From Candidatus Peregrinibacteria bacterium (GTDB taxonomy: Bacteria > Patescibacteriota > Gracilibacteria > UBA1369 > LOWO2-01-FULL-3), in NCBI GenBank assembly GCA_003566255.1, contig PXEC01000012.1, positions 1 through 23,582 on the forward strand: a stretch of DNA of 23,582 bases. Direction: 5' to 3'. Below the pieces are notes generated by a model. The model had not been told where the DNA came from. It saw only the letters and a list, made by a program, of their open reading frames with translations, and made no database searches. Numbering within the stretch: position 1 is the stretch's first letter; each line of letters starts with the position of its first letter. Position numbers and translations under genes: made by a program. Shown here piece by piece: positions 14,964-16,146 of this stretch.

Positions 14964-15392
14964 GGGGATGTATTGGCATTCGACAGGATGTTTCAGGTTC
15001 GAGTTGCTGCAATCAGGGGATCGCGTCGTCTCCCCTTAATCCGTCCGGCGCAAATTAAGTGCTAACGATTTTGTTGCACGCGCAGCTGAGAAATTGGCAG
15101 CAAGAGAGGGCTTTGCTCCTCGCCTTGCAGCTGTTCCAGTAGCTGCGTAAATGTCTGACTTTTTTCGGACACGTTCGTAATTCCGACATCCGCTAAGCTT
15201 TACGAGCGACATTTTGCGGGTTAAGGTCTTTTGACGGGCTTCGGTCAAAAGGCACGAAAAATTTTGAAGATAAGCATCGGGAACGAGTGTTTGTTCTTTT
15301 ACCCGATGACGAAAATTTTTGAACAAACTATGATTGTAGACGCGCTCCGACCTCATTGCTGGACCCGGGTTCGACTCCCGGCATCTCCACCA
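14964..15392 (+). ncRNA. ssrA: tmRNA (transfer-messenger RNA)
   Basis: Rescues stalled ribosomes and tags the unfinished protein for proteolysis. The 5' end GGGGATG pairs with CATCTCC at the 3' end (7 pairs, one G-U), followed by discriminator A and an encoded CCA (15390-15392). The T-arm is CCGGG-TTCGACT-CCCGG (15365-15381); hairpin CTTTTGAC/GTCAAAAG (from 15228) is a perfect 8-bp stem of the pseudoknot region. The tag frame begins GCT at 15061 and ends at TAA 15148-15150: 29 residues, starting ANDFVARAA and ending AAVPVAA. That is far longer than the 10 residues of E. coli. The resume codon context AAGT-GCT-AAC resembles the usual one. Confidence 0.96.
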
Positions 15393-15424
15393 GAAAATAT
15401 ATATAGGGGCATCTTTTACCTCAA
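15392..15424 (-). repeat. Inverted, degenerate copy of the 39-bp motif (copy 0)
   Basis: The reverse complement matches copy 1 from its GG onward: GG, pyrimidine, AAAA, two mismatched bases, TGC, one-base gap, then CCCTATATATATTTTCT. The match beyond the perfect inverted repeat argues it is a decayed motif copy and not a random AT palindrome. Confidence 0.6.
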
Positions 15425-15432
15425 CTGCGGAT

Positions 15433-15475
15433 AAAATCTTCAACGTGTACGGAAATGTACACTTTTGAAGATTTT
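15433..15475 (+). terminator. Strong hairpin, probable ssrA terminator
   Basis: AAAATCTTCAA (15433-15443) and GTGTAC (15445-15450) pair across a six-base loop (GGAAAT) with GTACAC (15457-15462) and TTGAAGATTTT (15465-15475): 17 pairs with one small internal bulge. T runs occur only inside the stem end, so this is not a textbook intrinsic terminator, but it is the strongest hairpin after tmRNA. Confidence 0.55.
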
Positions 15476-15476
15476 T

Positions 15477-15515
15477 CCTTGTTTCGGCAAAATCTGCACC
15501 CTATATATATTTTCT
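15477..15515 (+). repeat. 39-bp motif, copy 1
   Basis: CCTTGTTTCGGCAAAATCTG at the start, then CACC and ending ATATTTTCT at offset 30. The end coincides with the end of the long inverted repeat. Preceded by GAAGATTTTT, as copy 3 is by GAAGATTTTC. Confidence 0.8.
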
Positions 15516-15550
15516 ACTTTTTAATCTTTGTTTAGGCTTTTTTAAAAATT

Positions 15551-15589
15551 CCTTGATTCGGCCAAATCTGCACTTCCTCAACAATTTCT
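15551..15589 (+). repeat. 39-bp motif, copy 2
   Basis: CCTTGATTCGGCCAAATCTG then CAC, seven variable bases and ACAATTTCT at offset 30. Core GATTCGGCCAAATC is nearly palindromic (12 of 14). Distance to copy 1 start is 74 bases. Confidence 0.85.
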
Positions 15590-15596
15590 TATTCTT

Positions 15597-15616
15597 CAAG
15601 GGAAGATTTTCCCTTG
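15597..15616. repeat. Perfect 8-bp hairpin before motif copy 3
   Basis: CAAGGGAA - GATT - TTCCCTTG: perfect stem, four-base loop; the right arm overlaps the first bases of copy 3. Confidence 0.85.
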
Positions 15617-15650
15617 TTTCGGCCAAATTTGCACCAACGCGACAATTTCT
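15612..15650 (+). repeat. 39-bp motif, copy 3
   Basis: CCTTGTTTCGGCCAAATTTG then CACC, variable bases, and ACAATTTCT at offset 30, the same offset as in copy 2. Distance to copy 2 is 61 bases. It lies just upstream of the promoter of the 137-residue orphan gene. Confidence 0.85.
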
Positions 15651-15669
15651 GCGTTAGGCGGGTAATGTC

Positions 15670-15697
15670 TTGCAAAAAAATAAAAAACTACTATATT
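15670..15697 (+). promoter_or_regulatory. Promoter of the 137-residue orphan gene
   Basis: TTGCAA (15670-15675) and TATATT (15692-15697), 16 bases apart, give a start near 15704 and a leader of about 29 bases. A second possible -10, TATCAT, is at 15705-15710. The three direct motif copies lie 20-190 bases upstream of it. No Shine-Dalgarno before the ATG. Confidence 0.5.
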
Positions 15698-15732
15698 GGG
15701 GCACTATCATAAATTTCTTAACCTAAAAAATT

Positions 15733-16146
15733 ATGCAAACTCCTGAAAAAACTTTTACGGAACCTGTTGACCACCTGCTTGAAAGGGGGGAGGATTTTGA
15801 AGTCGGGCCGGAACATCTGGGAGAATTGGATGGACTTGTGAGGAAACTGGAGAGTGAATTGAGGGCGGAAGGCTTTAAAATCGACTACGCGACAGAGGGA
15901 ACACAACCGCGGCAGTGGTTTGTTTACCTGACCAAGGAGAGTGATGAACACGTGGAAATCGAAGTTTGGCACATGGCTGATGGAAGAAGGGTGGCGCGAG
16001 AGATAAAAGAGGATTCTTACGGACCGGTTCCGGGAGAGACGGACTTAAACATAATAGACGAGGAAACCTGGAGGAAGATTAATGTTTTGTGCAAAGCGTT
16101 TAACCTAAGAGAGGGGATATCGGATTCCGTTCCGTACAAATTGTAG
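15733..16146 (+). CDS. Unrecognised acidic protein, 137 residues
   Basis: I do not recognise this protein. It is soluble, with no signal or membrane helix, and acidic in its first half (ERGEDFEVGPEHLGELDGL). A predicted amphipathic helix (about 24-45) is followed by beta-prone blocks QWFVYLTKES and HVEIEVWHMADG and a final helix WRKINVLCKAFNL. Codon use is like the neighbours. It has its own promoter and follows the repeat cluster behind ssrA; the sigma-factor gene follows after 86 bases with a separate promoter. Reality is supported by the length, promoter and a coding-like sequence, not by homology. Confidence 0.7.
   Translation: MQTPEKTFTEPVDHLLERGEDFEVGPEHLGELDGLVRKLESELRAEGFKIDYATEGTQPRQWFVYLTKESDEHVEIEVWHMADGRRVAREIKEDSYGPVPGETDLNIIDEETWRKINVLCKAFNLREGISDSVPYKL

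What the first reader, a model, noticed from the sequence alone, without database searches (positions are those of the whole stretch)
15392..15650. Four copies of a 39-bp motif clustered directly behind ssrA
Three direct copies (15477, 15551, 15612) share CCTTG, TTCGGC, AAAT, TGCAC and, always at offset 30, an ACAATTTCT-like end. A fourth, inverted and degenerate, copy starts at the last base of tmRNA. Variable bases between conserved blocks suggest selection on the blocks. The core GATTCGGCCAAATC is nearly palindromic. Possible roles: protein-binding iterons controlling the orphan gene, a small mobile unit inserted at tmRNA, or remnants of an att site. Copies, spacings and offset are seen; roles are inference.
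Basis: partly seen in the sequence, partly recalled or inferred. Interest (0 to 1): 0.72.

Follow-up and report, generated by a model that had tools for sequence, protein, structure and literature searches.

The report
Palindromic repeat parked at tRNA ends
The repeats behind this gene are pieces of a roughly 125-letter, nearly palindromic and probably mobile DNA element that, in a group of tiny-genome bacteria, sits exactly at the 3' end of several transfer RNA and tmRNA genes.

Summary
One full copy (15391-15517) starts exactly at the encoded CCA of ssrA. The "inverted fourth copy" is its 5' arm; the motifs at 15551 and 15612 are 3'-half remnants.

Three more full copies lie in the same draft genome, two directly behind tRNA-Lys(CTT) and tRNA-Ser(GGA), one elsewhere. 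Of 22 strong copies in 8 of 89 genomes of the order, 16 begin exactly after the CCA of a tRNA or tmRNA, on the same strand. In the sister species a ~205-bp unit behind CCA is shared by the tmRNA and tRNA-Leu ends (181/205 identical), which points to copying.

Arms differ between copies but stay complementary, without G-U preference (G-U/A-C 12/19, against 57/4 in tRNAs): pairing is kept at DNA level. A probably related, larger family behaves as IS5-type MITEs.

Best reading: a MITE/REPIN-like non-autonomous element with CCA-end specificity. The mobilising enzyme, the right junction and any target duplication were not found.

The parts
14964..15392 (+). tmRNA gene (ssrA), CCA at 15390-15392; the insertion target
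   Evidence: ARAGORN; Rfam RF00023, 110.2 bits
15391..15517 (+). full palindromic element (type 1)
   Evidence: model match; fold z -7.15 for 15393-15670
15392..15408 (+).
   Evidence: exact reverse complement of 15499-15515
15407..15431 (+). 5' conserved core block
   Evidence: pattern match with 2 mismatches, 0 in 100 shuffles; same block in the other copies
15477..15499 (+).
15499..15515 (+). 3' outer arm
15534..15590 (+). 3'-half remnant 1 (core block 15551-15573); limits approximate
   Evidence: same half unit behind ssrA and tRNA-Leu in G001
15600..15652 (+). 3'-half remnant 2 (core block 15612-15634); limits approximate

Best explanation
A non-autonomous palindromic mobile element (MITE/REPIN-like) of a Peregrinibacteria lineage, plus two truncated tandem copies. 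SHOWN: the unit is ~125 bp, with conserved asymmetric core blocks and complementary arms whose sequence differs from copy to copy; in 16 of 22 strong copies the left end coincides to the base with the encoded CCA of a tRNA or tmRNA on the same strand; many isotypes are hit; in G001 the tmRNA and tRNA-Leu ends carry copies of one ~205-bp unit starting at CCA. INFERRED: the unit is copied into the position directly 3' of CCA by an enzyme acting in trans that was not identified; because the junction leaves the tRNA intact such insertions are tolerated; unequal exchange then leaves 3'-half remnants; the arms stay complementary through DNA-level processes (template switching between arms and/or a need for a DNA hairpin) rather than selection on a transcript. 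A host role as trailer or terminator may have been added but is not shown.
For: Two core patterns without arms find the same four full copies in the genome, three at CCA ends, as does the model. 16 of 22 strong copies in 8 of 89 genomes abut a CCA. tRNA-Lys(TTT) is occupied in G001 and empty in G000. tmRNA and tRNA-Leu ends of G001 share 181 of 205 aligned bases from the first base after CCA, arms included. At tRNA-Lys(CTT) G000 and G001 have different but self-complementary arms. No G-U excess in stems, unlike tRNAs. A probably related family has IS-type ends and in G018 an IS5 element with the same kind of ends.
Against: No transposase or recombinase was tied to type 1: NF033581 has no match in G000 or G001 and other families were not searched. 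No target duplication and no IS5-like end at type 1 copies. The Lys(TTT) flanks cannot be aligned beyond a few bases, so no clean empty site fixes the right junction. Copying rests on one within-genome pair. The ssrA copy itself could be vertical descent since the G000/G001 ancestor. Three strong copies are not at a CCA, and three follow a tRNA-like tail that ARAGORN does not call. Five of seven orthologous pairs show no two-sided arm change.
Confidence: 0.68

Rival explanations
1. A structured RNA: the hairpin is a functional 3' trailer, terminator or processing signal of tRNA/tmRNA transcripts, kept paired by selection on the RNA.
For: Always directly behind the RNA gene and on its strand in the 16 copies; strong folds (z -7.15 to -12.03); two-sided changes in 21 of 38 pairs of the first four copies; conservation behind ssrA between two species.
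Against: Stem mismatches show no wobble preference: G-U 12, A-C 19 (type 1), 54 and 59 (type 2), against 57 and 4 in 93 tRNAs. Patchy presence: 2 of 21 tmRNAs, 3 of 29 tRNA-Gly loci. The terminator scan found none at the element (it allows only loops of 3-8). No Rfam family there.
Confidence: 0.17
2. A host-domesticated descendant of an IS5-type MITE that no longer moves; the CCA position is a relic of old insertions kept because it is harmless or useful.
For: The type 1 model scores 4 of 5 type 2 copies at 39-50 bits but same-TIR palindromes of other interior at 21.7 bits or less; no IS5_4 transposase in G000/G001.
Against: IS5 targets YTAR, not CCA; exact abutment at many isotypes in 8 genomes and the tmRNA/Leu pair ask for a copying step aimed at CCA.
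Confidence: 0.12
3. Iterons for a regulator of the orphan gene 15733-16146, or remnants of an integrase attachment site.
For: Three direct copies within ~260 bp upstream of that gene; tRNA and tmRNA 3' ends are usual integrase targets (general knowledge).
Against: Same array in G001 without the orphan gene (by eye); copies elsewhere lie behind tRNAs; no repeat of the tmRNA 3' end in 15300-15800.
Confidence: 0.03

Closest known systems
REPINs (paired REP sequences, thought to be moved by RAYT transposases; PMC3116915, passages read)
   Same: Small, mobile, non-autonomous hairpins; [quoted passage not shown]
   Different: Here the core blocks inside and the CCA-end position are fixed; no REP sequence was looked for and RAYT was not tested. 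The terms searched in that paper gave 0 occurrences of tRNA.
IS5-family MITEs (type 2 elements of the same order, this work)
   Same: Probably related core and architecture, similar length, non-coding.
   Different: Type 2 carries GGAACCTCTGAAAAAC-like ends and YTAR-like flanks, mostly away from tRNAs; type 1 has neither and sits at CCA.
ERIC and NEMIS elements (as described in passages of PMC3116915; lengths recalled)
   Same: Intergenic palindromic repeats thought to be MITEs; ERIC is of similar length (recalled).
   Different: No sequence comparison was made; no tRNA-end specificity is known to me for them (recalled).
RtT RNA (RF00391)
   Same: Also begins directly behind a tRNA CCA; an RtT-like match (30.4 bits, gathering score 45) follows the element at tRNA-Ser.
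   Different: RtT-like units end in a copy of the tRNA 3' end (18 nt exact, L007 2253-2270); type 1 elements carry no such copy and are palindromic.

Membership tests
Non-autonomous palindromic mobile repeat (MITE/REPIN-like, broad sense) | Short, non-coding, terminal inverted repeats, several dispersed copies per genome | tested here: met
   4 full copies in G000, 7 strong copies in G001
Non-autonomous palindromic mobile repeat (MITE/REPIN-like, broad sense) | Evidence of copying or of occupied/empty sites | tested here: met
   G001 tmRNA/tRNA-Leu shared unit; Lys(TTT) occupied in G001, empty in G000; right junction not resolved
Non-autonomous palindromic mobile repeat (MITE/REPIN-like, broad sense) | Autonomous partner with the same ends | tested here: inconclusive
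   None found for type 1; only NF033581 was searched
IS5-family MITE | IS5-type terminal inverted repeat | tested here: not met
   GGGAACCTCTGAAAAA (up to 1 mismatch): 0 in G000 and G001; type 1 only
IS5-family MITE | YTAR target duplication | tested here: not met
   Type 1 copies are flanked by ACCA and unrelated bases on the right
REPIN | RAYT (Y1) transposase in the genome | not tested
Structured RNA | Wobble pairs tolerated in stems as in known RNAs of the same genomes | tested here: not met
   G-U 12 / A-C 19 against 57 / 4 in tRNAs
Intrinsic terminator | Hairpin followed by a T run | tested here: inconclusive
   None called at the element, but the scan allows only loops of 3-8
Integrase att site | Direct repeat of the tRNA/tmRNA 3' end bounding the insert | tested here: not met
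   No such repeat in 15300-15800

The most novel reading that the evidence does not exclude
A new kind of tRNA-end-guided mobile DNA: the element carries a right end complementary to CCA (TGG at the end in 4 of 16 CCA-abutting copies by script, a fifth by eye; also in G062, G084 and G086), and the tRNA 3' end itself, as DNA or as a primer, takes part in joining. The 5' arm would then be a templated copy of the 3' arm. That would explain why arms are particular to a site yet complementary, why CCA often lies inside the palindrome, and why the two full copies not next to a CCA end in G001 (C57, C33:19532) lack matching outer arms.
Probability: 0.15. Interest if true: 0.85.

Novelty: new variant of a known kind. 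Interest (0 to 1): 0.52.

Why it matters
Palindromic bacterial repeats are usually scattered between genes. One that lands to the base at the CCA end of many different tRNA genes and leaves the tRNA intact would be a safe-haven targeting strategy in genomes of about 1 Mb, and predicts an enzyme that reads tRNA gene ends. The wobble count with a tRNA control is also a simple, general way to tell a DNA-level palindrome from a structured RNA: here covariation looks strong, yet the RNA reading fails the test.

Tried and rejected
Structured RNA family: Rfam gave only tmRNA in the window and, in five related loci, tRNAs, a 6S RNA and sub-threshold matches. Iterons and att remnants: see rivals. Viral origin: the type 1 core pattern has 0 matches in viral contigs; a type 2 pattern gave 18 stretches, none matching model R2 at E <= 0.01. 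A Thiohalophilus record found with a type 2 pattern is a chance match: no special fold (z -0.36), no model hit. Plasmids: no match for one type 2 copy. A loose type 2 pattern gave about as many control as real matches and was dropped. Arms taken from pre-existing terminators at the target: considered, but the tmRNA/Leu pair shows arms copied with the element. A resemblance to Geobacter repeats was recalled; passages of PMC2700814 showed nothing comparable, its supplementary alignments were not seen; dropped.

Literature: ten searches. No listed title or abstract start described a palindromic element at tRNA CCA ends; the library lacks most subscription papers. Seen: PMC2700814 passages; PMC8794818 abstract and start of the introduction; PMC3116915 passages.

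Rows dropped before counts: one search used 80 of the 82 matches (without L111, which has an insert, and the reverse-strand match of L105) and 20 of the 37 (without reverse-strand, cut-off and tandem second-unit matches). Its raw arm counts (type 2 G-U 29, A-C 51, other 90; type 1 G-U 2, A-C 20, other 47) include fixed internal mismatches; one search is cleaner: 17 copies for type 1, 81 of 82 rows for type 2, 2 of 36 type 2 pair columns skipped (over 40% mismatches). One search used 79 of 82 copies.

Results against or weakening: R2 also matches the 164-bp MITEs weakly (10 matches at E <= 1 in 11 loci, best 32.2 bits), so its weakest genome hits may not be type 2. 17 of the 22 strong copies were used to build R3; they were first found with R1, built from four. 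The reversed control was not empty: 5 matches in 99 genomes, against 241 real ones (my notebook entry 5 says 0, wrongly).

Full report
What is there. The window is one contig of a 0.89-Mb draft genome, 76% complete. It carries ssrA at 14964-15392. Named records holding the related type 2 elements are Candidatus Peregrinibacteria (6 of 7 records; the seventh is a chance match). Directly behind ssrA, 15392-15408 and 15499-15515 are exact reverse complements and the stretch between folds back further.

Copies in the same genome. Two core patterns without arms and a covariance model find the same four full copies: C88 (ssrA), C117 (behind tRNA-Ser GGA), C171 (behind tRNA-Lys CTT) and C116 (beside the end of an 876-aa reading frame, no tRNA). 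A cut second unit at C171 and a lone 5' half at C116 were also found. Because the patterns leave out the arms, the tRNA association here is not an effect of the model.

Copies in relatives. Model R3 (17 copies) in 89 genomes of the order gave 13 genomes at E <= 1e-6. Of its matches 22 on the forward strand are strong (E <= 2.1e-20) and lie in 8 genomes: G000 4, G001 7, G008 5, G011 2, one each in G012, G015, G026, G039; 17 of the 22 had been used to build the model. In 16 of 22 an ARAGORN-called tRNA or tmRNA on the same strand ends with its CCA exactly where the arm begins (for G001:C34 the model match starts 9 bases later). Three more, all in G008, follow GCTGACCCACCA, which reads like a tRNA-Lys end but is not called as a tRNA. 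Three do not fit: C116, G001:C33:19532 (a second unit behind another copy) and G001:C57 (behind another unit that is cut by the contig end). Isotypes: Lys (CTT, TTT), Leu (TAA), Gly (TCC, GCC), Ser (GGA, TGA), Glu, Val, Arg, Asp, Trp, and tmRNA. The distance from CCA to the core is 16 nt in 9 of 16, and 13 to 17 in 14 of 16; at G039 the script found 12 (16 if CCATC is taken), and at G011 tRNA-Trp the arm is longer. Further related elements lie at CCA ends in G062 (tRNA-Glu) and G084 (tRNA-Ser) and behind a tRNA-like tail in G086. Of 79 type 2 copies scanned, one starts at a tRNA-Ala end and three lie next to tRNA 5' ends.

Patchy presence. Behind tmRNA: 2 of 21 read. Behind tRNA-Gly, mostly TCC: 3 of 29 readable loci; 41 of 60 genomes had a match, 30 were given as loci. 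In G000 2 of 22 tRNAs and in G001 5 of 23 carry it, besides tmRNA; tRNA-Trp of G001 has a fragment. tRNA-Lys(TTT) is occupied in G001 and empty in G000; the two flanks share only GAAATT after CCA, so the right junction cannot be read from this pair.

Copying. From the first base after CCA, the tmRNA and tRNA-Leu(TAA) loci of G001 share 181 of 205 aligned bases: full element, spacer and 3' half, parting near ...CAATGTTGCAATTTCTG. Similar right ends occur in G001 behind tRNA-Lys(CTT) and, changed, tRNA-Gly(TCC). At tRNA-Lys(CTT), G000 and G001 have nearly the same tRNA but different, self-complementary arms (7 two-sided and 5 one-sided changes among 47 pairs); the second unit of G001 ends like the first of G000, which suggests exchange between units. 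Not every locus shows this: five of seven orthologous pairs had no two-sided change.

DNA or RNA? Paired columns of 17 type 1 copies: Watson-Crick 664, G-U 12, A-C 19, other 24; of 81 type 2 rows: 2522, 54, 59, 113. Stems of 93 tRNAs from the loci held: 1510, 57, 4, 10. A stem kept for its RNA should look like the tRNAs. It does not, although both structures come from RNA folding rules that allow G-U. So complementarity is kept or renewed at DNA level. Template switching between arms is a described route (PMC8794818, abstract read). Selection for a DNA hairpin is the alternative; the preserved asymmetric core blocks argue that at least the core is selected. The two are not separated here.

A wider family. 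Model R2 finds ~130-bp palindromes in 43 of 99 genomes (39 at E <= 1e-6), at least 34 in G007 and in G013, where the number of scored candidates was capped; this includes cross-matches to type 1, and its weakest hits may be other palindromes. Several copies keep GGAACCTCTGAAAAAC ends. GGGAACCTCTGAAAAA with up to 1 mismatch has 241 matches in 21 of 99 genomes, against 5 for the reversed control, often as inverted pairs 124 or ~164 bp apart. In G018 such ends, with one base changed in both and TTAG on both sides, enclose an IS5-family transposase gene. So the type 2 elements are best read as IS5-type MITEs. Of 79 copies, 35 lie between reading frames that converge on them, 38 between co-directional and 6 between divergent ones, judged by the longest open frame. 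The type 1 model scores four of five type 2 copies at 39-50 bits, but the palindromes with the same ends and another interior at 21.7 bits or less; type 1 and type 2 are therefore probably related. Type 1 itself shows neither IS5 ends nor YTAR flanks, and NF033581 had no match in G000 or G001 (7 of 99 genomes, 4 over the cut-off).

Verdict. It works like MITEs and REPINs. Membership in either is not shown: IS5 features fail for type 1 and a RAYT was not looked for. A host function is possible but not supported by the pairing statistics.

Noticed in passing
L007 (G000:C117) 2125-2270: RtT-like unit (30.4 bits, below the gathering score of 45) behind the element at tRNA-Ser, ending in an exact 18-nt copy of the tRNA 3' end; similar-looking units by eye behind the elements of G026, G015, G011 and G012.
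   Followed up: partly
L007 386-544 (-): 6S RNA above the Rfam gathering score (52 bits).
   Followed up: no
L323-L352, tRNA-Gly loci of G007, G013, G029, G035: A shared stretch like AAACAGTAAATCGCGATTTTTC directly behind the tRNA-Gly CCA in four genomes of different genera; another possible CCA-end sequence family.
   Followed up: no
L257, L258, L259, L272, L273, L275, L276, L277, L280, L282, L284: A second MITE family of ~160-220 bp with the same GGAACCTCTGAAAAAC ends but another interior, also with stems that vary between copies; 47 and 45 end matches on the two strands in G040.
   Followed up: partly
window 14964-15392: ARAGORN reads a long tmRNA tag of 29 residues, ANDFVARAAEKLAAREGFAPRLAAVPVAA.
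   Followed up: no
window 15733-16146: 137-aa frame with no Pfam match; not present between the array and the next gene in G001 (by eye).
   Followed up: partly
L226 (G001 tRNA-Cys): Tandem units behind tRNA-Cys, each ending in the tRNA 3' end, RtT-like in layout.
   Followed up: no
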